From Methanospirillum hungatei (GTDB lineage Archaea > Halobacteriota > Methanomicrobia > Methanomicrobiales > Methanospirillaceae), in assembly GCF_019263745.1 (NCBI RefSeq), contig NZ_CP077107.1, forward strand, positions 2,852,001 through 2,916,000: DNA of 64,000 bases, written 5' to 3'. The notes below the pieces were generated by a model. That model was not told the DNA's origin and searched no databases. It saw only the letters and a list, made by a program, of their open reading frames with translations. The position numbers were made by a program, and so were the translations under genes. Within the stretch, counting starts at the first letter, position 1, and each line of letters starts with the position of its first letter. Below are positions 1 to 12,724 of the stretch, one piece after another.

Positions 1-3000
1 AGGTAACCGGCCCGTCAGTTAACCCAAAACTTGTAACCGATACTGCAATTGTAAGTGAGAGGTCTGCAATATTAAGCGGTCATATTACAAATGCCGAACC
101 TGGTGTTGATTATCCGGTTAGTTTTAGGTATGAAGGTGGGGCAACTCCGAAGACAAAAGTTGGTTTATCTATTGTAAATCAAACGAACTCTACATATCGC
201 CATATCCTTACCGAGCTCAGTCCAGGCACAACCTATTACTATCGTGCAGTTCACCGTGATTCTGCGGGTCCTGAAAATCCACATTTAATTGATGCTGATA
301 ATCTTGAGTCATTCGTAATTGGAGGTAGCCCGTCGCCAACCATCACTTCAATCTCTCCCCTATCCGCCCCCAACACCACATTGGTCCAGTTCCGTATCAC
401 CGGCTCCAACTTCCAGTCCGCTCCTCTACCGATTGTGAATCTTTCTAAAACATTTGGAGATGGCCAGATAAACATCACCGGGACGAATATTGCCGTCCTT
501 GATTCCGGGAATATAACCGGCACATTTGATATTACCGGTAGAAGAACAGGAACGTATGATCTGGTTGTCAAGAATGGGGATGGACAGATCGCTGCGAAGA
601 GCGGTTCTTTTGAGGTAACTGGTCAGAGTTCATCTGTCATTGTAAACTCAATCGAACCATCGACTTCTTTTAATGATGATATATATGGATTTATCATTCA
701 TGGTGCTGGGTTCATTGAAGAATCTCTTGTGACGATTGCAAGACCTGGGACCGCTATCACGCGGAGTTGTTTGTATGGCGGTCCTGACACGATCTCTGTA
801 ATATATCACCTCCAGGGTGTTCCTGCAGGGATATACAATGTTACAGTCACTAATCCTGATGGCAAGTTAGGAAAGATGGAGAATGCACTTACTATTGAAG
901 ATAAACCTCCCAAACCTTTAGATTCAAAGTTTATAGCCTCAGTCGCCTCCGGTAAGGTTCCTCTGGAGGTAACATTTTATGATCAGTCTGATGGTAATCC
1001 CACATCATGGCTATGGGAATTTGGCGATGGAATGATCTCCAATGAAAAAAATCCTACCCATACCTATGTCAATACAGGGTATTACACGGTGAACCTGACG
1101 GTAAGTGATGGAACAACCTCTCGAAAATTGTCCCTGCCTGATTACATAATCGGGACTCCGGATGATACAGGAGATAAGTTAAAAATTAATAGTGCCGTCT
1201 CATATGCAGCAGGTACAATAAACACTGACTATTGTGGTAATTCATTGACGTTCATCAATGATGTGTATCAGAATGGGTCAGGGTATGCGTTTGATTCACG
1301 GATTCAGAGTTTTGAGCAGGTAAAAGAGTTATTTAAAAGGGCTAACAGAAATCAGACCCTAATCCCACCGAAAGGATCTGTTGCAATGTATCAATCCGGA
1401 GACATGGCCTTTGCTTTGTCTGAAGGAGACGGGAATGTTATTGGCTGTGATATGAATCAGAAGATCATTCACAGGGGGTATAATCCGAATCCTGAAGGAT
1501 ATATTGGATGGGCGTTTCCGATTATTTCGGCACCGACGGTGCTGTATCCGATAAACAACACTGAGGTCAGCAATGACTTTGAAATGACTTGGAAACATCC
1601 GATTTGGTCTAATCAAACCGATATCAGCCATTATGAAATAAATATACAGGAGGTTTTAATGAGTTCTGATGAAAATGTTGGATTAGCACAAAATTCCTAC
1701 ACAGATATTGTGAATTATCCTGCTAATACTTACAAATTTCTTTTAACTGGTGGAAAGGCCTTTTCACTTAATATTTATACTTGCTATTATAATGGATTCA
1801 AATCAAAAGATGTAACCAAACTGTTCACTACAACTGAAATGGGTGAATGGGTTGAAGTTAATAGTCCGACTGGAGCCTATATTGTTAGGAATCCTATAAT
1901 GATATCGGAATATCAAAATATTCCTCTTGATTTTAATTTTGAAAATGTTCCCGAAAATTTGAACACTAATAACCAATATTTTAAAAATCTTCAAAAAATT
2001 TTAAATTCAAATCCAATTACACAAATATCTGACATAGATTTTTATTATAAAAGACCATCAGAACAGGAGCCCGGCTCTCCGGGTTATGAAACTGATTTAC
2101 TTGGAAGTAAAACTAAGAATTCATTAGAACTATTCAAAAAAATACACTCATTTGATGAAGAAATTGGAATATCTATTCTGGATGTGGAAAAAACACCGAA
2201 AACAATTACGAAGTTAAATGAGAATAAAAATACTTTACAGCATCAGCCTATTAAATTGATTCCAAATGGGTGGGTTATTCAAAATAAATTTGAATTGTTG
2301 AATGGTTACCAACACATTTATGATGTCACTGATAAAACGGATGGATGGATAAAGATCGATGAAATTCAGTCTTCAATTTCTGAAGACAGGGCTGTGCAGG
2401 TAATAAAGGAAGAATCCTCCAGAAAGCCGATTATTAGGGGATTAGTGGAAGAATTAATTCCCATTTTTCTTAAAGCGGGAAGGTCATTTAATTATCCACC
2501 TACCGAATTTCCTACTTATCTCGTAATTGCAAAGATTGCTCAAGAATCATGGATTGTTCATTATGATAATGATTTTATCACAATGGATCCATGGGGTAGG
2601 GGAATCGCTCGCATTGATGCAGATAAATATGTGGGGAAAGCTTTGGGTATTAGATGGTGGAATGATCATGGTGATATTGATACATGTCGGGATTTAGGTT
2701 GTTCTGAGAGCCCATTACCCACAAAAATCGGAGAATCAACCTATTGTCTTTATTGTCCTACTGATAACCCAAATTGTGTATGGGCATCGAGAACGAAGAC
2801 AACTTGTGTAAAAAGATATCCCTCTGATTCATGCGGTGCTGAAAACATTAAAGATCGTTATAATTATCCTGGATGGAGTTGTGAGGCATGTACTCACTTC
2901 TACACAAATACAACACAGGGCATAAGAGCCAACATTGCTGACGGATTGTATGCTTTAAACGATCATTATAAATTAGTGAAAGATGGATATGAAAAGTGTA

Positions 3001-4637
3001 TTAAGTCCGATAATAAGAATATTTGTGTTGGGCAGGAAGAAAAAACTTGTTTTTCATGTGAAGAATTTGCATGGATTTCTGCTTTACAGAGATATAATGG
3101 CTATAAAACCTACCCCGGGACATATTTATGTGATTCTTCAATTGGACTCTGCTATCAATTAAAAAACCGTATTAAGGATTTTTACTACAATAACGGTAAT
3201 TATGATGATTATGAAACAGAAAAAAGTCAGATTGGTGGAAAAACAGTAAAAGAAGCTGCAGATGATTTCGCAAAGCGATTGGAAATTCTTGTAAGTCATT
3301 CTACAGAAATAAAAATGTGGAGTCCGATTGAACCACAAGTTATTGATTCTCTTGGAAGAATGACGGGAATATTAAATGGAGATGTGATTGAGGATATTCC
3401 TTTTTCTATTTATGATCCTGCTTTGGAGAGAATCTGGTTACCTGAAGATAATGACTCAATAATTTACCGCTTTATTGGGACGGAATCAAGTAATTACTCA
3501 CTTTCTATCTCCAGTACAGAATTATTCAACGCATCAGGTATATTAACAAAAAAGAGGGAGGTTCATGAATATTCTATAAATTGGACAATGCTTCAGAAAA
3601 ATGAAACAGGTGTTATGATTAAGATTGATAAAAATGGCGATGGTACTTTTGATACAATTGTATATTCTGATAAACACTGGAACCCTATAAAATCGAATTT
3701 TTCATCAAATATTACTAAAGGTTTTGTACCAACTGCTGTCTCATTTATTGATTTATCAATAAATTCACCCTCTCACTGGTTATGGACATTTGGCGATGGT
3801 ACAAATTCAACTTTACAAAACCCCATTCATATCTATAAAATACCCGGTAATTACACAGTCTCGCTTACGGTTTCAAATGATTTAGGTATTGACACCTCGA
3901 CCCAAATTGATTATATCATGTTAGCACCCTCTAATAATTTCATCACCTCCACCGCCTCCCCGAACGGCACCATCACCCCAGCAGGTTCAATCCCCGTCCC
4001 CGAAGGCTCTGATCAAACTTTCACCATCACCCCAAATCCCGGTTTCTATATCCATGACGTTCAGGTCGACAATCAAACAGTCGGAGCAGTAGCAAAATAC
4101 ATATTCCGCAATGTCACCACAAATCACACCATCCATTCGGATTTCACCGACATCCCTGGCCAGTATGAGATCAACGCCACAGCAGATTCCTGGTCAATTG
4201 TGTATCCATCTGGTAACATATCATACCCGGTGGGAACAAATAAGACCTATATCACCCAGCCAAAACCCGGAGCTGACCTGGTAGACGTAGTCGTAGATGA
4301 TGAATCAGAGGGAGCGATTAAAACCCGACCATTCACAAATATCTCTTCAGACCACCGGATGGCAACAGAAGGAACCCCATCACCAGGTCAGATCCACGTC
4401 TCCTTCAATGCCACTCCGACAACTGGCACCCCTCCACTTGAGGTTTCATTCAGGGATCAGTCCATTGGTGATCCAATATCGTGGTATTGGCAGTTTGGTG
4501 ACGGGGGGATCTCATCAGATAAAGATCCCGTTCACCAGTATAAAATTCCAGGGATATTCACCGTCTCTCTCCGAGCATATAATAATCAAACTGCAGGGTA
4601 TCAAGTGATGAATAATTTTATCCAAGTAAAAGGGTAG
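1..4637 (+). CDS. Giant modular surface protein (PKD/TIG/InlB-like repeats), 5' end outside window
   Basis: The frame is open from base 3 to the stop at 4635-4637, giving at least 1544 residues; the true start lies left of the window. Counting from base 3, I see a fibronectin-III-like end (GTTYYYRAV, about residue 80), two IPT/TIG-like blocks (about 116-300), a PKD domain (308-375, WLWEFGDG), a long AT-rich centre, a second PKD (about 1240-1306, WLWTFGDG), two InlB-B-like repeats (about 1312-1457) and a third PKD (about 1465-1544, WYWQFGDG) at the very C-terminus. The centre (bases about 2500-3180) holds some 15 cysteines and motifs resembling a lysozyme/SLT fold. Such repeats are typical of exported methanogen surface proteins. 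There is no C-terminal membrane anchor, so secretion or attachment must depend on the missing N-terminus. Cell-surface adhesion or wall remodelling is inference. Confidence 0.85.
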   Translation, partial: VTGPSVNPKLVTDTAIVSERSAILSGHITNAEPGVDYPVSFRYEGGATPKTKVGLSIVNQTNSTYRHILTELSPGTTYYYRAVHRDSAGPENPHLIDADNLESFVIGGSPSPTITSISPLSAPNTTLVQFRITGSNFQSAPLPIVNLSKTFGDGQINITGTNIAVLDSGNITGTFDITGRRTGTYDLVVKNGDGQIAAKSGSFEVTGQSSSVIVNSIEPSTSFNDDIYGFIIHGAGFIEESLVTIARPGTAITRSCLYGGPDTISVIYHLQGVPAGIYNVTVTNPDGKLGKMENALTIEDKPPKPLDSKFIASVASGKVPLEVTFYDQSDGNPTSWLWEFGDGMISNEKNPTHTYVNTGYYTVNLTVSDGTTSRKLSLPDYIIGTPDDTGDKLKINSAVSYAAGTINTDYCGNSLTFINDVYQNGSGYAFDSRIQSFEQVKELFKRANRNQTLIPPKGSVAMYQSGDMAFALSEGDGNVIGCDMNQKIIHRGYNPNPEGYIGWAFPIISAPTVLYPINNTEVSNDFEMTWKHPIWSNQTDISHYEINIQEVLMSSDENVGLAQNSYTDIVNYPANTYKFLLTGGKAFSLNIYTCYYNGFKSKDVTKLFTTTEMGEWVEVNSPTGAYIVRNPIMISEYQNIPLDFNFENVPENLNTNNQYFKNLQKILNSNPITQISDIDFYYKRPSEQEPGSPGYETDLLGSKTKNSLELFKKIHSFDEEIGISILDVEKTPKTITKLNENKNTLQHQPIKLIPNGWVIQNKFELLNGYQHIYDVTDKTDGWIKIDEIQSSISEDRAVQVIKEESSRKPIIRGLVEELIPIFLKAGRSFNYPPTEFPTYLVIAKIAQESWIVHYDNDFITMDPWGRGIARIDADKYVGKALGIRWWNDHGDIDTCRDLGCSESPLPTKIGESTYCLYCPTDNPNCVWASRTKTTCVKRYPSDSCGAENIKDRYNYPGWSCEACTHFYTNTTQGIRANIADGLYALNDHYKLVKDGYEKCIKSDNKNICVGQEEKTCFSCEEFAWISALQRYNGYKTYPGTYLCDSSIGLCYQLKNRIKDFYYNNGNYDDYETEKSQIGGKTVKEAADDFAKRLEILVSHSTEIKMWSPIEPQVIDSLGRMTGILNGDVIEDIPFSIYDPALERIWLPEDNDSIIYRFIGTESSNYSLSISSTELFNASGILTKKREVHEYSINWTMLQKNETGVMIKIDKNGDGTFDTIVYSDKHWNPIKSNFSSNITKGFVPTAVSFIDLSINSPSHWLWTFGDGTNSTLQNPIHIYKIPGNYTVSLTVSNDLGIDTSTQIDYIMLAPSNNFITSTASPNGTITPAGSIPVPEGSDQTFTITPNPGFYIHDVQVDNQTVGAVAKYIFRNVTTNHTIHSDFTDIPGQYEINATADSWSIVYPSGNISYPVGTNKTYITQPKPGADLVDVVVDDESEGAIKTRPFTNISSDHRMATEGTPSPGQIHVSFNATPTTGTPPLEVSFRDQSIGDPISWYWQFGDGGISSDKDPVHQYKIPGIFTVSLRAYNNQTAGYQVMNNFIQVKG

Positions 4638-4752
4638 TGTCGAGGTTTCATAATTGGCACATATCCCTTTTTTTCTTGAATCCATAATATATGGGCAGAA
4701 CTATTCCAAAAAACAATTAATTGATTCAGCTTGATGATATTCAATATACTAT

Positions 4753-5067: not shown

Positions 5068-5385
5068 ATGGAGACAGAACATTCACTGCTGGACCAGATA
5101 TCACGAAAAGAAGCTGAGCTCAAAGAGCAATGTGATGTCGTCTGTAAAGAAGCAGAAACCCGAATCCATGATGCTCGAGTCAAGGCGCGGAATTTGAGGG
5201 AAGAAGCAGAAAAGAAAGGAGCAGAAGAAGCATCCAGGTATATGAAGGAAGGTCTTTCTAAACTGTCCGAGGAAATTTCTTCTATTCACCTGGCTGGAGA
5301 AAAAGAGGCAGAAGAGATTCTCAAAAAAGGGGAAAAAAAGGTTGATGGTGCAGTAAAACAGATCGTCGAAATGGTTCTGGGGTAA
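5068..5385 (+). CDS. ahaH: A-type ATP synthase subunit H (peripheral stalk)
   Basis: First gene of the nine-gene ATP synthase operon. The 105-residue product is almost entirely a charged Glu/Lys/Ala coiled coil, as expected for AhaH, which pairs with AhaE to form the peripheral stalks holding the A3B3 head to the membrane stator. It has no membrane segment. The stop is followed after one base by the ahaI start, implying translational coupling. The length matches the family (about 100-110 aa), and the assignment rests on size, composition and invariant position before ahaI. Confidence 0.9.
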   Translation: METEHSLLDQISRKEAELKEQCDVVCKEAETRIHDARVKARNLREEAEKKGAEEASRYMKEGLSKLSEEISSIHLAGEKEAEEILKKGEKKVDGAVKQIVEMVLG

Positions 5386-5386
5386 T

Positions 5387-7300
5387 ATGCTGCAAAAGAT
5401 GAAACAGATCCTGGTGGTTGGTCCAAAAAAGGACTATCAAAGAATAGTTGATGTACTGTACCAGGCAGGTTCTCTTCATCTTGAGGATGCAAAAAATGAA
5501 CGCCTGGAGACCATGGAAATTGCTCCGCTTGATACTTTTAACCCTGAAGAAATCACGTCTCTATTAATTCGGATAAAGGGCCAGCTCCAGATCCTGACAC
5601 CAACGGATTCTAAGAAGGCTCAAAAAAGTCCTCTTATAGAAAAATACGCAGGCCTTTCTTATAATGAATTGTCCATTACGGCAACAGAAGTCTGTGATTC
5701 TCTCGAAGAACGGCTTCGGACTCTTGAGACCAGAAAAGGGGATCTTGATGTCAGGTACACAACCCTTGCAAGGTATGAAAAGATCATCAAAAAGATATCT
5801 CCACTCGAGCAACAACTTCCCACCCTTGAAGGATTTGAAGTCACCATTTTAATCATTCAAAAAGAATTCGAATCAGTCCTTGAGATTATTCATCCGTTTT
5901 TATCCGAAATAACCAGAAACCAATTTGAATTCATCAGTGCAGATCTTGATGACAAAAATATCGCGGTAATTACGGTATTCAGTAAAAAATATGCAGGTAA
6001 GGTTCATGATTTTCTCTATTCAAAGAACGTAAATGAAGTGCGGATTCCCCAGGAGTATACAAACATGCCCCTGGAGAAGGCACTGGCCCTTATTGCAGCA
6101 GATAAAAAAGCAATTATAGATGAAATTGCTGAAATAGAAAAAAGGATCAAGGAAATCTCTGTAGTATGGTATGCTGATCTCTTCACTCTGAAAACATTAC
6201 TCACTAACTTTCTTGAGGAGACCTCTGCATATTCTCACTTTGGTCAGACAGATTATACTTTTGTGGTAAAGGGATGGATACCACAGAAATATCTGCCTGC
6301 AACGAAAAAGGCGCTCAAAAGTAATTTTGATGAATCAGTGGTGGTAACTGAGCTCCCGTACGATCCAGCAGTTTTTGATAATGCCCCGGTGTATTTTGAT
6401 AATCCATTCTGGGCAAAACCATTCGAGTTCTTCATGAACCTGGTTCAACCCCCGCAATATCGTGAGATTGATCCCACACCACTTATTGCCATCTTCTTTC
6501 CCCTCTTTTTCGGACTCATCGTGGGTGATATCGGATATGGGATGGTAATTTTATGTTTCAGTCTTTTTGTCCGGTATAAATTTTCTCATATCGGGTGGCT
6601 AAAACAACTCATGGGAATCCTCATAATATCTTCTATTCCTACGATTATTTTTGGGTACATATTTGGGGAGTTTTTTGGAGATCTTGGCGAGCACATGGGC
6701 TGGCTTCACCCACTTACCATTTTTGGCATCACCTGGAACCGGATTGAATCAATCATTCCACTCCTCCTCCTGACAATAGGGATAGGCGTATTTCATGTAT
6801 TTTTTGGCTTGTCTCTTGGTATTTTGAATGCTCTCCGGCACCACAAGAAAAAGCACGCTATTGAGAAGATCGGTATGTTAGGCCTCGTGTCCGGGATTCT
6901 TCTTCTATTGGGTTCTTATGCCGGGCATATCCCGAAATCAGTGTTATTTCTGATCATTGCTTTGATGCTAATCTCAATCGGGTGCCTGATATACGGCGGT
7001 GGCAGTCGGGGAGTTATCGAAGTGATGGGAACAATTGGCAATATTATGTCATATGCCCGTCTGATGGCTATCGGGCTTGCCTCGGTGATACTGGCATTAG
7101 TTGCTAACCGGCTTTCGCATGAAATTGGTATCTTCATTGTGGGTATTATTGTTGCAATTCTCCTTCATGCATTAAACATTCTTCTTGCCATGTTTAGTCC
7201 ATCTATTCATTCCCTTAGATTACATGTGGTGGAGTTCTTCTCGAAATTTTATGAAGGAGGAGGTAATCCTTACAAACCATTTGGAAAAGAGCGACTCTAA
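5387..7300 (+). CDS. ahaI: A-type ATP synthase subunit I (membrane stator, a-subunit)
   Basis: The 637-residue protein has a soluble N-terminal half with helical hairpins (to about residue 330) and a C-terminal half with about seven to eight membrane helices, the V-type subunit a layout. The conserved arginine needed for ion translocation is visible in the segment IGNIMSYARLMAIG near residue 550. It forms the ion half-channels beside the AhaK ring. The start ATG (5387) directly follows the ahaH stop. A short T-run (7306-7311) and a new TATA box lie downstream before ahaK. Confidence 0.95.
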   Translation: MLQKMKQILVVGPKKDYQRIVDVLYQAGSLHLEDAKNERLETMEIAPLDTFNPEEITSLLIRIKGQLQILTPTDSKKAQKSPLIEKYAGLSYNELSITATEVCDSLEERLRTLETRKGDLDVRYTTLARYEKIIKKISPLEQQLPTLEGFEVTILIIQKEFESVLEIIHPFLSEITRNQFEFISADLDDKNIAVITVFSKKYAGKVHDFLYSKNVNEVRIPQEYTNMPLEKALALIAADKKAIIDEIAEIEKRIKEISVVWYADLFTLKTLLTNFLEETSAYSHFGQTDYTFVVKGWIPQKYLPATKKALKSNFDESVVVTELPYDPAVFDNAPVYFDNPFWAKPFEFFMNLVQPPQYREIDPTPLIAIFFPLFFGLIVGDIGYGMVILCFSLFVRYKFSHIGWLKQLMGILIISSIPTIIFGYIFGEFFGDLGEHMGWLHPLTIFGITWNRIESIIPLLLLTIGIGVFHVFFGLSLGILNALRHHKKKHAIEKIGMLGLVSGILLLLGSYAGHIPKSVLFLIIALMLISIGCLIYGGGSRGVIEVMGTIGNIMSYARLMAIGLASVILALVANRLSHEIGIFIVGIIVAILLHALNILLAMFSPSIHSLRLHVVEFFSKFYEGGGNPYKPFGKERL

Positions 7301-7340
7301 AACCATTTTTTCTATCTTCTTTTGTGACGGACAAATCACA

Positions 7341-7353
7341 ATATATAAATATA
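7341..7353 (+). promoter_or_regulatory. Internal promoter (TATA box) before ahaK
   Basis: ATATATAAATATA sits in the 83-base gap between ahaI and ahaK, just after a T-rich stretch (7306-7323) that could terminate or attenuate transcription. The expected start, about 25 bases downstream, falls just before the GGAGGT ribosome binding site at 7374-7379. An extra promoter would suit the proteolipid, which is needed in many copies per complex. Position and sequence are seen; activity is inferred. Confidence 0.55.
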
Positions 7354-7383
7354 CACAGGATAAGGTAATCGTTGGAGGTTATC

Positions 7384-7602
7384 ATGACAGGTTGGGAAGT
7401 CCCTATTGGTGCTGCAATTGCCTTTGCTGGAGGAGCAATTGCAACTGGAATCGCCCAGTCAAAGATTGGAGCAGCCGGAGCAGGAACTGTAGCCGAACGT
7501 CCGGAGTCCGCAGGTATTGTCATCGTTCTGGAGGCTATTCCTGAAACACTGGTCATTTTGGGTTTTGTAGTGGCCGCTATGATCATCATCATGGTTGAAT
7601 AA
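7384..7602 (+). CDS. ahaK: A-type ATP synthase subunit K (c-ring proteolipid)
   Basis: A two-helix hairpin of 72 residues forming the rotor ring. I choose ATG 7384 because GGAGGT (7374-7379) is placed correctly for it; an upstream in-frame TTG at 7372 would overlap that ribosome binding site. Helix 1 contains Q25 (GIAQSKIG). Helix 2 contains P53-E54-T55 with the ion-binding carboxylate E54. A glutamine in helix 1 combined with Glu-Thr in helix 2 resembles the coordination set of sodium-binding c-subunits, so Na+ coupling is possible but not proven. It is a single hairpin, with no duplication or fusion. Confidence 0.95.
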   Translation: MTGWEVPIGAAIAFAGGAIATGIAQSKIGAAGAGTVAERPESAGIVIVLEAIPETLVILGFVVAAMIIIMVE

Positions 7603-7637
7603 TCAACCAGGTACCGTTGTACAGAAGGTGAATAGCA

Positions 7638-8231
7638 ATGGCATATGAAGACCTTATCAAGTCCATAGAGTCTGCGGCGGATGAAAAAAATCGGGAGGTT
7701 CTCCGGGATGCTGATCGGGAAATAGAGGCAATTCTTCGGGAAACCGAAACTGAACTCTCGGCTATCCATGCTCAGTACCTGGAGAAAGCAAAACGAGATC
7801 TGGCTCTTGAATCTAACCGACAAAAATTTCTTGCAAAACAGGAAGTTAAACGAAAGGTAAGTTCCGTCAGACAACAACTCATACATGAGGCTATTGATAA
7901 ATCGTTGCAGAACATGGCCAATATAAGGTCTGACTCGATGTATGCCTCTTTATATGAGCGTCTTGTTGATGAGGTTATCCGGTCACTTGCCGGAGAACAG
8001 ATAGTTCTTCATATTGATCCAGCTGATGCAACGTTATGTGAAAAAGTCCTTCACAAAAACGGCCTTGATTATCGCATTGAAAAGGATTTGCGGACCATTG
8101 GTGGTTTGTGTGGAACATCTGCAGATGGCAAAATCCGTGCTGATAATACCCTGGAAACCAGGTTATCAAAAATTCAGGAACAATCAACCCTTGAGATCAT
8201 CACCCTGATTCTTGGAGGTCCTGATGGATAA
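7638..8231 (+). CDS. ahaE: A-type ATP synthase subunit E (peripheral stalk)
   Basis: The 197-residue product has a long charged N-terminal helix (about residues 1-90) for pairing with AhaH and a globular C-terminal domain (about 100-197) that docks on the A3B3 head. GGTGAAT just before ATG 7638 serves as ribosome binding site. The end of the gene contains the GGAGGTC ribosome binding site of ahaC, and the two frames overlap by 8 bases, indicating coupled translation. Length and position are standard for the family. Confidence 0.93.
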   Translation: MAYEDLIKSIESAADEKNREVLRDADREIEAILRETETELSAIHAQYLEKAKRDLALESNRQKFLAKQEVKRKVSSVRQQLIHEAIDKSLQNMANIRSDSMYASLYERLVDEVIRSLAGEQIVLHIDPADATLCEKVLHKNGLDYRIEKDLRTIGGLCGTSADGKIRADNTLETRLSKIQEQSTLEIITLILGGPDG

Positions 8232-9273
8232 CGGCTATGTGAATGCCCGAATCAGGGGTATGTATTCACGGCTGCTTGATAAAGGGAGCCTGAGCAATTT
8301 AATTTTAAAACCTGATATTTCTAGCCTGATTACAGCTCTTGAAGAAACGACATATCGGGAAGATTTGGAACGTGCTCTTGTTGGAAAACCAGGTTTATCT
8401 GGGATAGAAGATGCTCTCAGACAGAATCTCATCAGGACGATTCAAAAAATAGCACGGTTTTTAGAAGGGGAAAAGGGAGAGCGATATATTAAAATCTTCT
8501 CATCCCGGTGGGATATTCATAATCTTAAAACAATTCTCCGGGGAAAGAGGATCTATGTTCCTTCCATGCAAATCCAGGAAAACCTGGTTCCTGCTGGAGA
8601 ATTTGATGAGTCGCTTCTTACCGAACTTTTAAAGCAGCCGGATATAAAAGGCGTTATTGATCTTCTTGCAACTTGGGATGTTCCTTATGCTTCTCCTCTT
8701 ACCACTGCATTTCCGGAGTATTCCCGTGTATCGGATCTTATCATTCTAGAAAATGCACTTGATCAGTTTTATTATGAGCAGGCCCGTTCCCTTGTGAGTG
8801 GTAAATCTGAAGATGAACGTATTATCCGTGATTTAATTGCAACCGAGATAGATCTTATAAACCTTAAGTCTGTGTTGATGATTGTCAGGGATAATATCGA
8901 TACAGAGGATGCAGATCAGATTCTTATCGAAGGAGGCAGGGTATTTGATCGCAAAAAACTCCGGGTTATGCTGGACCTTGGGTCAGTACCCAGTGTTGTT
9001 GAATTCCTTGAAGAAACTCCATACCGTTTTTTGAGTGATTTACGAAGCACTGAAGGTGATAACCTCAAAATATCTGCGTATCAGCATCTCCTTGATGAAT
9101 ACCTGATTCGGCATGCTATCAGGTTGTACCGGGGCGATCCTCTTTCTGTTACGATTGTAATTGGGTATATGTGGGCTAAATATACCGAAATTATGAATTT
9201 GCGGATAATTGCACGATGTAAAAATGCTCTGATCCCTCCAGAAGATATGGAGGCGGAGATGGTGTATGTATAA
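8224..9273 (+). CDS. ahaC: A-type ATP synthase subunit C (rotor, d-subunit type)
   Basis: A 349-residue, largely helical soluble protein of the V-type d/AhaC family, the funnel that connects the central shaft (AhaD/AhaF) to the AhaK ring. ATG 8224 is chosen because GGAGGTC at 8214-8220 is a good ribosome binding site for it; the upstream TTG at 8212 overlaps that site. It overlaps ahaE by 8 bases and ahaF by 8 bases. The length fits the family. Confidence 0.93.
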   Translation: MDNGYVNARIRGMYSRLLDKGSLSNLILKPDISSLITALEETTYREDLERALVGKPGLSGIEDALRQNLIRTIQKIARFLEGEKGERYIKIFSSRWDIHNLKTILRGKRIYVPSMQIQENLVPAGEFDESLLTELLKQPDIKGVIDLLATWDVPYASPLTTAFPEYSRVSDLIILENALDQFYYEQARSLVSGKSEDERIIRDLIATEIDLINLKSVLMIVRDNIDTEDADQILIEGGRVFDRKKLRVMLDLGSVPSVVEFLEETPYRFLSDLRSTEGDNLKISAYQHLLDEYLIRHAIRLYRGDPLSVTIVIGYMWAKYTEIMNLRIIARCKNALIPPEDMEAEMVYV

Positions 9274-9586
9274 AGTCGTCATCATCACTGATCCTGAATC
9301 AGCAACCGGATTTCGCCTTGCCGGGTCTGATGTCCTGGAGGCTGAAGATTCAGTTACAGCATCACGACTGTTATCGTCTCTGCTTCATGAGGACGAAACG
9401 GGTATTATTGCAGTTCGTGAAGATTTTCTTGCAAATCTGGATAAAAGCCTGTATGAAGAGATTGAACGGTGTTATCACCCGGTCATTATTCCGATTCCTG
9501 CACCCCGGAAAGGCGACGAAGTGAGCGGGTATGTTGAACGTCTGCTCCGGAGAGCGATAGGATATAATGTGGTGATGAGGAGTTAA
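9266..9586 (+). CDS. ahaF: A-type ATP synthase subunit F (central stalk)
   Basis: A 106-residue protein beginning [20 protein letters not shown], the recognisable opening of V/A-type subunit F, a small Rossmann-like protein bound to the rotor shaft that modulates coupling. It starts inside the end of ahaC (ATG 9266) and ends one base before ahaA. Length and order are as usual. Confidence 0.93.
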
Positions 9587-9587
9587 C

Positions 9588-11342
9588 ATGATAACCGGAA
9601 CAATTGCCAGAATTTCAGGACCGGTAATTACTGCACGGAATATGACCGGATCGCGGATGTATGATGTTGTATCAGTGGGGAAGGCGGCCCTTCCTGGAGA
9701 AATTATCCGGCTTGAAGCAGATGAGGCAGTTATCCAGGTCTATGAGGATACAACCGGTCTTATGATCCACGAACCGGTGGAGAATACGGGAGTTCCTCTG
9801 TCTGTAGAACTTGGCCCAGGTTTACTGGCATCTATTTATGACGGAGTTCAAAGGCCTCTTCCTGCCCTGTATGCAAAGAGCGGGAATTATATTAGCAGGG
9901 GCATCATGGTTCCCGGGCTTGACCGGGATAAAAAATGGGCTTTTCATCCGGTCAAAAAAGCAGGGGATGATGTACAGTCAGGTGATGTAATTGGAACGGT
10001 CCAGGAGTTTCATCTTGTTCATTCAATTATGGTCCCACCCGGAGTTACGGGTACAATTAAAACCATTTCTTCAGGAGAATTCACTGTTGTCGATACCGTC
10101 TGCATCCTTGAGGATGGGACAGAATTATCCATGCTTCAGCGGTGGCCGGTAAGAAAGGGAAGGCCCTTTATCAAGCGACTGGATCCGGAGGTTCCCCTGC
10201 TCACCGGCCAGCGGGTCTTTGATACGATGTTCCCCCTGGTGAAGGGTGGGACTGCCATGATTCCGGGCGGGTTTGGAACCGGGAAGACAGTATCGGAACA
10301 AACCCTTGCAAAATGGGCTGATACCCAGGTGGTTGTTTATATCGGATGTGGTGAGCGGGGAAATGAGATGACTGATGTGCTGACTGAGTTTCCGGAACTG
10401 ACCGATCCGAGAACCGGTTACCCGCTGATAGAGCGGACGATCATGATCGCAAACACCTCAAATATGCCGGTAGCTGCCCGTGAAGCGTCTATTTACACCG
10501 GAATTACAATAGCAGAATATTACCGGGACATGGGCATTGATGTCGCACTTTTAGCAGATTCGACCTCCCGGTGGGGAGAAGCACTCCGTGAAGTCTCCGG
10601 AAGACTTGAAGAGATGCCGGGAGAAGAAGGGTATCCTGCTTATCTTGCAACCCGTCTTGCTGCTTTTTATGAACGTGCGGGACGGGTTATCTGTGCAGGT
10701 TCTGAAGAAAAAACCGGTTCGGTAACGATTATTGGTGCGGTATCACCTCCGGGAGGTGATTTTTCTGAACCGATAACCCAGAACACTCTTCGGATAGCTG
10801 GAACTTTCTGGGCTCTCGATGCAAATCTTGCATATCGCCGGCATTACCCGTCAGTGAACTGGATTCGGAGTTATTCCCTGTACCTCGAGGATGTTGAGGA
10901 CTGGTTTTCAGAACAGGTTGCCCGTGACTGGTACCAGTTCAGGGGTCGGGCAATGTATATTCTGCAAAAAGAAGTTGAACTTCAAGAGATTGTGCAATTA
11001 GTCGGACCAGACGCTCTTCCGGATAAGGAAAAAGTAGTCCTTGAGATTGCTAAAATTATTCGTGAAGATTTCCTCCAGCAGAGTGCTTATAGTGATGATG
11101 ATTCATTCTGCCCGCTTGAAAAGCAATACTGGATGCTGAAAGTGATTATCTGGTATTATGATGCAATCAGGGCTGCAATGAGACGGAGTGTTCCACTTCG
11201 TCAGCTTCTTTCAATCCCAGCCAGGTCAGAGATAGCACGGATGAAAGAACAGAAAGATTTGGGCCGGTTAAAAGCGCTCAGTGATCTGGTGTGGGAACAG
11301 ACTGAAACCCTGGAGGTGCAGACATGCAGCACGGCAGCCTGA
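9588..11342 (+). CDS. ahaA: A-type ATP synthase catalytic subunit A
   Basis: The 584-residue catalytic subunit. It has an N-terminal beta-barrel, the family-specific insertion (about residues 110-190) and the nucleotide-binding core with P-loop GGFGTGKT, then IGCGERGNE and [14 protein letters not shown]. It hydrolyses or makes ATP in the A3B3 hexamer in the cytoplasm. ATG 9588 follows the ahaF stop by one base with GAGGAG upstream. The last 19 bases overlap ahaB. No inserted intein or truncation is seen. Confidence 0.98.
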
Positions 11343-12724
11343 TTACAGTGGATTATCAGACGGTACATTATGTATCAGGTCCTCTCATCTTTGTTGAACG
11401 GCCAAAAGAGATCTCCTTTGGTGAGACTGCGCAGATTGTTCTTCCGGATGGAGAGATAAGGACTGGTCAGATCCTTGATATTGCTGAGGATATTGCTATT
11501 GTTCAGGTCTTTGAAGGGACCAGGGGTATTGATAGTCACGTGACAACCGTCAGGTTCACCGGCCAGTCTCCTCTTATTGATGTCTCGTATGATATGCTTG
11601 GCCGGGTGCTGAACGGAGTCGGGCGGCCACGAGACGGTGGACCGGCAATTATTCCCGAAGCCAGGCTTGACATCGCTGGAATGCCAATTAATCCCTATTC
11701 CCGTGACAAACCCGCAGAATTTATTCAGACTGGAATCTCTGCAATAGATGCACTTAATACACTTGTCAGAGGTCAGAAACTCCCCATTTTCTCAGGTGCA
11801 GGGCTTCCCGCTAACCAGCTGGCTGCCCAGATAGCAAAACAGGCCAAAGTCCTGGGAGAGGGAGAAAACTTTGCAGTGGTTTTTGCAGCGATGGGTATCA
11901 CCTATAAAGAAGCTTCATTCTTTATGAAAGAGTTTGAAGAGAGTGGTGCCTTAGAACGGGTCGTTTTCTTCTTAAACCTTGCCGATGATCCAACCATCGA
12001 ACGGATTGCAACCCCCCGGTGTGCTCTTACTGCTGCTGAGTTTCTGGCATATACACATAATCTGCATGTCCTGGTCATTCTGACTGATATGACCAATTAC
12101 TGTGATGCCCTTCGAGAAATCTCGACTGCTCGTGAGGAGATTCCGGGAAGGCGTGGATATCCTGGGTACATGTATACCGACCTTGCAACCATTTACGAAC
12201 GTGCCGGACGTATCAAGGGCTGCACCGGATCAATCACCCAGATTCCGATTCTGACCATGCCGGATGATGATATCACTCACCCAGTTCCTGATCTGACCGG
12301 ATATATTACCGAAGGGCAGATTGTGTTATCCCGTGACCTGTTTAGGAAAGGGGTTAATCCACCTATTGATGCCCTTCCCTGCCTCTCACGGCTTATGAAT
12401 CTTGGTATCGGGCCTGGAAAGACCAGAGAAGATCACCGGAATGTGGCAGATCAGCTCTATGCTTCCTACGCCTATGGACGGGACCTTCGAAGGCTGGTTG
12501 CTATTGTTGGAGAGGAGGCACTTTCAGAGCTTGATCGGAATTACCTGAAATTTGCGGACCATTTTGAGAAGCGATTTATCTCACAGGGAAATGTGGAGCG
12601 AAGTATTGAGACAACCCTGCAGGTTGCATGGGAACTTTTCAGCTTGTTGCCTGACCAGGAACTGAAACGAATAAAAGAAGAATACATCGATAAATATCGG
12701 ACACTTATCATCTCCGGAGGATAG
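11324..12724 (+). CDS. ahaB: A-type ATP synthase regulatory subunit B
   Basis: The 466-residue non-catalytic head subunit. In place of a P-loop it has the B-type sequence [15 protein letters not shown]; the conserved blocks [26 protein letters not shown] and [13 protein letters not shown] are present (both split here by eye, neither complete as a motif quote). It alternates with subunit A in the head. The ATG at 11324 lies inside ahaA with GGAGGT upstream, so translation is coupled. The stop is three bases before ahaD. Confidence 0.98.

What the first reader, a model, noticed from the sequence alone, without database searches (positions are those of the whole stretch)
2500..3180. Lysozyme/transglycosylase-like, cysteine-rich segment in an archaeal surface protein
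The order IAKIAQESW, WGRGIARID, NIADGLYALNDHY and WISALQRYNGY parallels the SLT/goose-lysozyme pattern (catalytic E-S, G-x-x-Q-I, N-I-x-x-G-x-x-Y-L, A-x-x-Y-N-x-G), with about 15 cysteines between. Archaea of this order have no murein, so such a domain could target bacterial walls, a sheath polymer, or act as a binding module. Similarity is by eye only.
Basis: inference. Interest (0 to 1): 0.62.

Follow-up and report, generated by a model that had tools for sequence, protein, structure and literature searches.

The report
Lysozyme-like module in methanogen surface protein
A giant secreted protein that a Methanospirillum methanogen gained at one locus carries a cysteine-rich stretch that resembles, but is not proven to be, a bacterial-wall-cutting lysozyme, next to other modules that look borrowed from bacterial cell-wall enzymes.

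Summary
The motifs and exactly 15 cysteines are present as reported, inside a 2,392-aa secreted protein. Sequence evidence for a GH23/SLT lysozyme domain is suggestive, not conclusive. In a four-motif test, 2 of 1,345 own-genome windows score as high; in an unselected six-block test, 40 of 1,361 do. No Pfam, NCBIfam, PHROG or PDB profile recognises it. An alignment-guided AlphaFold model is partly confident, but Foldseek returns no lysozyme. The catalytic-type Glu848-Ser849 is kept; the Gln of GxxQI is Arg870.

The surroundings add support. Residues 404-505 look like an NlpC/P60 (C40) domain without its catalytic Cys and His. Pfam calls an fn3 at 522-565. Weak PG_binding_1-like and SH3b-like stretches follow. 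This is a peptidoglycan-hydrolase layout. The module behind (1107-1223) is a methanogen surface module. The block is AT-rich (GC 0.34 against 0.43-0.45).

The gene lies in an 8.0-kb insertion between two A-type ATPase operons. M. hungatei JF-1 has only 76 bp there. No relative of the lysozyme-like domain was found.

Best reading: a laterally assembled, secreted murein-binding and perhaps murein-cutting protein, about 45% likely. Main rival: an orphan Cys-rich domain with a chance likeness.

The parts
3..4637 (+). C-terminal 1,544 aa of a 2,392-aa secreted multi-module protein; the gene starts at window position -2541 (L001:9459-16637)
   Evidence: DUF7948, SBBP, TIG and PKD modules by Pfam
936..1118 (+). 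PKD domain before the unusual block (residues 312-372)
   Evidence: Pfam PF18911/PF00801
1212..1517 (+). degenerate NlpC/P60 (C40)-like module, residues 404-505; Ser414 at the catalytic Cys position, catalytic His missing
   Evidence: HMM of five Streptomyces plasmid proteins of NlpC/P60 or C40 type: this ORF ranks first of 1,390 own-genome ORFs; segment E = 0.0057. Not found by Pfam
1566..1697 (+). fn3 domain core (residues 522-565)
   Evidence: Pfam PF00041 26.9 bits, cut-off 25
1977..2174 (+). possible PG_binding_1-like stretch (residues 659-724)
   Evidence: hhalign P = 0.008 in the expected register, but HMMER score below decoys; by eye otherwise
2271..2369 (+). possible SH3b-like stretch (residues 757-789)
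   Evidence: by eye only; no Pfam match to SH3 families
2373..3272 (+). lysozyme/SLT-like, Cys-rich module (residues 791-1090)
   Evidence: four-motif test; hhalign; MAFFT; AlphaFold; negatives
2544..2549 (+). Glu848-Ser849, position of the catalytic Glu and following Ser of GH23
   Evidence: aligned with invariant E and S of SLT domains
2685..2891 (+). Cys-rich insertion 1 (Cys 895-963, with CLYC and CEAC), between motifs 2 and 3
   Evidence: low model confidence (residues 886-969)
2997..3152 (+). second Cys group (Cys 999-1050, with CFSC), around motif 4
3321..3671 (+). methanogen surface module (residues 1107-1223), shared with an LVIVD/LGFP surface protein of Methanomethylovorans hollandica
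   Evidence: tblastn E = 4e-11, 33.6% identity
1501..3750 (.). AT-rich block inside the gene: GC 0.338, GC3 0.256, against 0.434 and 0.453 on the two sides
1..4747 (.). right part of an 8.0-kb insertion (about -3300 to 4747) between two A-type ATPase operons; about 76 bp stands there in M. hungatei JF-1
   Evidence: L175, L176, L177; G198 length 3,544,738 bp equals JF-1

Best explanation
The segment is most likely a divergent GH23-like (SLT/goose-lysozyme superfamily) module with two Cys-rich insertions. It sits in a secreted protein whose central block copies the layout of bacterial peptidoglycan hydrolases: dead NlpC/P60-like, fn3, PG-binding-like, SH3b-like, lysozyme-like. Outside the cell the protein would hold bacterial murein through the N-terminal modules and, if Glu848 acts as the general acid, cut the MurNAc-GlcNAc glycan or loosen it. 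The targets would be bacteria that touch the archaeon, such as syntrophic partners or patescibacterial epibionts. Shown: the motifs, the Cys cluster, the fn3 domain, the AT-rich block and the lineage-specific insertion. Supported but not proven: the NlpC/P60-like module and the GH23 relationship. Inferred: secretion, murein binding, hydrolysis and ecological role.
For: Four-motif test: 0 of 1,000 shuffles and 2 of 1,345 own-genome windows as good. hhalign finds the E-S and G-x-G-I register unprompted, P = 0.033. MAFFT aligns E848, S849 and G867 with SLT conserved columns, and Y1031-N1032 as well. In the guided AlphaFold model a helix ends at E848, as in lysozymes, and core helices reach pLDDT 70-83. 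NlpC/P60-like module ranks first of 1,390 ORFs. fn3 by Pfam. Patchy occurrence and an 8-kb insertion with altered composition fit the lateral, arms-race distribution described for archaeal murein hydrolases (PMC12352652). Undoubted SLT domains occur elsewhere in the phylum in propeller and PG-binding proteins. Methanospirillum is host to bacterial epibionts (PMC9763046, PMC12281837).
Against: Unselected six-block SLT test: 40 of 1,361 windows as good. Own SLT HMM with --max scores the domain no better than decoys. No curated family. No lysozyme by Foldseek. Gln of GxxQI is Arg. The NlpC/P60-like module lacks its catalytic residues, so the whole array may be non-catalytic. No homologue, hence no conservation evidence.
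Confidence: 0.45

Rival explanations
1. The segment is an orphan Cys-rich adhesion or structural domain, held by disulfides or bound metal (three CxxC pairs), and the likeness to lysozyme motifs is chance helped by reading freely spaced short motifs.
For: No family, homologue or fold match; unselected block test not significant; the unusual property that is certain is the Cys cluster; other Cys-dense genes exist in this genome.
Against: Motif order rare in this genome; hhalign and MAFFT find the same register; neighbouring modules point to murein hydrolases.
Confidence: 0.37
2. The domain has a lysozyme-type fold but is a binding module without catalysis, one of several dead murein-hydrolase modules used to dock on bacteria.
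For: Q to R870 in the sugar-binding GxxQI motif; NlpC/P60-like neighbour without catalytic Cys and His.
Against: The catalytic-type Glu and its Ser are kept; lysozyme activity can survive without the Gln (general knowledge).
Confidence: 0.13
3. The domain acts on the archaeon's own envelope (sheath, S-layer glycans or end plugs) during cell separation.
For: Methanospirillum has a protein sheath and plugs (PMC11641113, PMC6242892).
Against: The gene is absent from the same locus in JF-1 and two other Methanospirillum species, and no relative of the domain was found in the genus, although the sheath is a genus feature.
Confidence: 0.05

Closest known systems
GH23 / SLT lytic transglycosylases and goose-type lysozymes (PF01464; SLT70, MltC, MltE, lysozyme g)
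   Same: E-S after a helix, then G-x-x-x-I, N-I-x-x-G and Y-N in the same order; preceding amphipathic helix
   Different: Below detection by every curated profile; Q of GxxQI is R; about 75-residue and 20-residue Cys-rich insertions; 15 Cys
Archaeal modular peptidoglycan hydrolases (PMC12352652; e.g. Woldo of Halogranum salarium, M23 plus PG_binding_1)
   Same: Secreted archaeal protein with wall-hydrolase-like and wall-binding-like modules, patchy occurrence, presumed lateral origin
   Different: Not detectable by the Pfam rule used there; giant propeller/PKD scaffold; catalytic module unproven
NlpC/P60 plus lysozyme bifunctional hydrolases (e.g. Tn916-like cell wall hydrolase, PDB 4hpe)
   Same: Both an NlpC/P60-type and a GH23-type module in one protein
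   Different: Order reversed, NlpC/P60-like module lacks Cys and His, other modules between
LVIVD/LGFP surface protein of Methanomethylovorans hollandica (WP_015313879.1)
   Same: Same module behind the domain (33.6% identity over 117 aa), beta-propeller in front, bacterial-wall-type repeat (LGFP)
   Different: No lysozyme-like or Cys-rich segment

Membership tests
GH23 / SLT (PF01464) | Recognised by the family profile over the curated cut-off | tested here: not met
   No match, with and without the Cys inserts; own SLT HMM at decoy level
GH23 / SLT (PF01464) | Catalytic Glu followed by Ser at the end of a helix | tested here: met
   E848-S849 aligned with invariant E-S of the SLT rows; modelled helix ends at E848
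GH23 / SLT (PF01464) | GxxQI motif | tested here: not met
   GIARI, Q replaced by R870
GH23 / SLT (PF01464) | NIxxGxxYL motif after GxxQI | tested here: inconclusive
   N977, I978, G981, L985 present, Y absent; MAFFT does not place it consistently
GH23 / SLT (PF01464) | AYNxG motif | tested here: inconclusive
   Y1031-N1032-G present, spacing of G differs; aligned, not
GH23 / SLT (PF01464) | Lysozyme fold | tested here: inconclusive
   Model pLDDT 57.6, pTM 0.53; no Foldseek match
GH23 / SLT (PF01464) | Cleaves murein glycan | not testable with these tools
   needs enzyme assay
NlpC/P60 (C40) | Profile similarity over the domain | tested here: inconclusive
   E = 0.0057 with a five-sequence HMM, first of 1,390 ORFs; no Pfam match
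NlpC/P60 (C40) | Catalytic Cys and His | tested here: not met
   Ser414 at the Cys column, His column deleted
Archaeal modular peptidoglycan hydrolase (PMC12352652) | At least one Pfam catalytic and one Pfam wall-binding domain | tested here: not met
   Only DUF7948, SBBP, PKD and fn3 reach Pfam cut-offs
Archaeal modular peptidoglycan hydrolase (PMC12352652) | Secreted, patchy distribution | tested here: met
   Signal-peptide-like N-terminus by eye; lysozyme-like domain in 1 of 232 class genomes, gene missing at the same locus in three relatives

The most novel reading that the evidence does not exclude
A methanogen carries a laterally assembled, secreted murein hydrolase with a new Cys-rich subfamily of GH23, mounted on a propeller/PKD scaffold, used against or to manage bacteria at its surface, for example patescibacterial epibionts that attach to Methanospirillum plugs.
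Probability: 0.22. Interest if true: 0.72.

Novelty: new variant of a known kind. Interest (0 to 1): 0.42.

Why it matters
Archaea have only recently been shown to make peptidoglycan hydrolases that kill bacteria, and the published survey accepts only proteins with recognisable Pfam domains. If this segment is a lysozyme, diverged archaeal wall hydrolases have been missed, and a strictly anaerobic syntroph with known bacterial epibionts would have such a tool. Related species that lack the gene at this locus give a natural comparison (M. hungatei JF-1, the recorded host of Minisyncoccus archaeiphilus). If it is not a lysozyme, it remains a Cys-dense orphan domain in a recently gained surface protein.

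Tried and rejected
Homologues of the lysozyme-like domain: class and phylum genomes, genome contigs (14, 21), viral contigs (25), phages and plasmids (20, 29, 30); none. The weak hits to the neighbouring region, mostly histidine-kinase ATPase motifs, and the hits (DNA-binding or membrane proteins) were inspected and rejected as chance. Excising the Cys inserts did not bring a Pfam hit, and phmmer against the PDB gave only Polo-like kinases. Scanning viral contigs for the WGRGIxxID pattern gave six chance matches, none in a lysozyme, so that motif is not diagnostic. A consensus of a PG-binding type recalled from memory found nothing useful, so my impression of a patescibacterial donor is untested and not claimed. 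Aligning SLT halves separately failed. Single-sequence AlphaFold was useless (pLDDT 37). Ends of the insertion show no convincing direct or inverted repeats and no tRNA. The Pfam hit to a kinetoplastid Dicer domain is below cut-off and rejected.
Full report
What the window holds. The ORF at window 3-4637 (+) is the C-terminal part of a 2,392-aa protein that starts 2,541 bp upstream. Its N-terminus has a hydrophobic stretch (YFLILFALMMLIQGVHA) that reads as a signal peptide, followed by DUF7948, SBBP beta-propeller repeats, TIG-like repeats and a PKD domain. Behind that PKD come about 870 residues that curated libraries do not explain, apart from one fn3, and then more PKD domains.

Organism. 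The related genome G198 has 3,544,738 bp in one contig, exactly the size of Methanospirillum hungatei JF-1 (PMC4704411), so the genus is Methanospirillum. The window's genome has 3,393,136 bp; its sampled genes average 42.5% GC. This fits M. purgamenti (3.39-3.52 Mb, 42 mol%, PMC11346949), probably strain GP1; the strain is my inference.

The observation. The Cys cluster is the second densest among 589 genes sampled. The motifs match the SLT pattern only in part: E848-S849 exactly, G867-x-x-R870-I871 without the Gln, N977-I-x-x-G981 without the Tyr, Y1031-N1032-G1033. A test with PSSMs from 38 distinct archaeal and viral SLT sequences found the same four sites by itself. No shuffle of 1,000 reached the score, and 2 of 1,345 windows from about 0.86 Mb of the same genome did. 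With all six conserved SLT blocks, chosen without regard to the query, 40 of 1,361 windows scored as high. The likeness is real but weak, and partly selected by eye.

Is it a lysozyme? Pfam, NCBIfam and PHROGs give nothing, and Pfam still gives nothing when the Cys inserts are cut out. hhalign of the single sequence with the SLT profile gives P = 0.033 in the expected register. MAFFT puts E848, S849 and G867 in the SLT columns, and Y1031-N1032 as well, but not the third motif consistently. AlphaFold with these 35 SLT domains as alignment rises from pLDDT 37 to 57.6 and pTM 0.53. The helices before and at E848 and around motifs 3 and 4 reach 70-83, while the Cys-rich insertion stays below 50. 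Because the alignment was chosen to contain SLT domains, this support is partly circular. Foldseek against the PDB and BFVD gives no lysozyme and nothing with E below 0.001. The fold is undecided.

Neighbouring modules. Residues 404-505 align over their length with NlpC/P60-type modules of Streptomyces plasmid proteins. An HMM of five of them ranks this ORF first of 1,390 own-genome ORFs, and the segment alone has E = 0.0057. The bait that fetched those five was written from memory, which biases the choice of family. The catalytic Cys column holds Ser414 and the His column is deleted, so this module should be inactive as a C40 peptidase. Residues 522-565 are an fn3 over the Pfam cut-off. Residues 659-724 have a weak PG_binding_1-like register (hhalign P = 0.008; HMMER not better than decoys). 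Residues 757-789 resemble the end of an SH3b domain by eye only. The order is that of modular bacterial peptidoglycan hydrolases, which is the strongest argument that the lysozyme-like motifs mean something; it rests on several weak calls.

The module behind. Residues 1107-1223 match a surface protein of Methanomethylovorans hollandica (E = 4e-11). That protein has an LVIVD propeller, an LGFP repeat and is annotated as a PGF-pre-PGF protein. So at least this part is a module that circulates among methanogen surface proteins.

Origin. The stretch 1501-3750 has GC 0.338 and GC3 0.256, against 0.434/0.375 before and 0.453/0.451 after it. The whole gene lies in an 8.0-kb insertion. In JF-1 the same flanks (a DUF gene next to a universal stress protein gene on the left, the second ATPase operon on the right) are about 76 bp apart; two other species also lack the gene there. 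No repeats or tRNA mark the ends. Neither the lysozyme-like domain nor the rest of the block before the shared module has a convincing relative in 232 genomes of the class. A phylum sample of 394 genomes, genome contigs, and phage, plasmid and viral collections also gave none for the parts searched there.

How it probably works. The protein is probably secreted. Its central block most likely recognises a polysaccharide, with bacterial murein the natural candidate because archaea of this order have none. Catalysis is possible: the Glu-Ser pair and Tyr-Asn are kept. It is not assured: the Gln is Arg, and the neighbouring hydrolase-like module is dead. The 15 Cys with three CxxC pairs would stabilise the insertions by disulfides or metal. 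Methanospirillum lives in close contact with bacteria and carries patescibacterial epibionts at its plugs (PMC9763046, PMC12281837), so docking on, or attack of, such cells is a reasonable role; this step is inference only.

Compared with what is known. Archaeal peptidoglycan hydrolases that kill bacteria are established in haloarchaea, and modular homologues occur in about 5% of archaeal genomes (PMC12352652). SLT domains over the Pfam cut-off occur in 9 of 394 sampled genomes of this phylum, some in TolB-like propeller proteins or beside PG_binding_1-like repeats. This protein would be a diverged, Cys-rich variant of that kind. It fails the formal membership tests (profile, GxxQI), so it should be called lysozyme-like, not a member.

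Noticed in passing
window about -3300 to 4747 (L001:8700-16747): 8.0-kb insertion between two A-type ATPase operons; empty site of about 76 bp in M. hungatei JF-1 and also gene-free in two other Methanospirillum genomes.
   Followed up: yes
L001 (G000:C1 2840001-2857500) and window 5068-12724: Two complete-looking A-type ATPase operons lie side by side; a third copy of the I subunit is at G000:C1 3358970-3360952.
   Followed up: no
   Followed up: partly
L100:13020-13904: Own-genome secreted protein with a tandem Cys repeat (CGD-CYDP-TQSCC), 23 Cys in 156 aa.
   Followed up: no
L024, L026: Archaeal secreted proteins with a TolB-like propeller, an undoubted SLT domain and a C-terminal anchor-like end: clear precedents of a surface lysozyme-type domain in this phylum.
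   Followed up: partly
L178:1-4634 (WP_015313879.1): Methanomethylovorans hollandica plasmid protein combining LVIVD propeller and LGFP (bacterial cell-wall type) repeats with the same module found at window 3321-3671.
   Followed up: partly
G000:C1 2852288-2852635 and L001 upstream copy: The TIG-containing stretch of the giant protein is duplicated within the protein at 76% identity, a sign of recent internal duplication.
   Followed up: no
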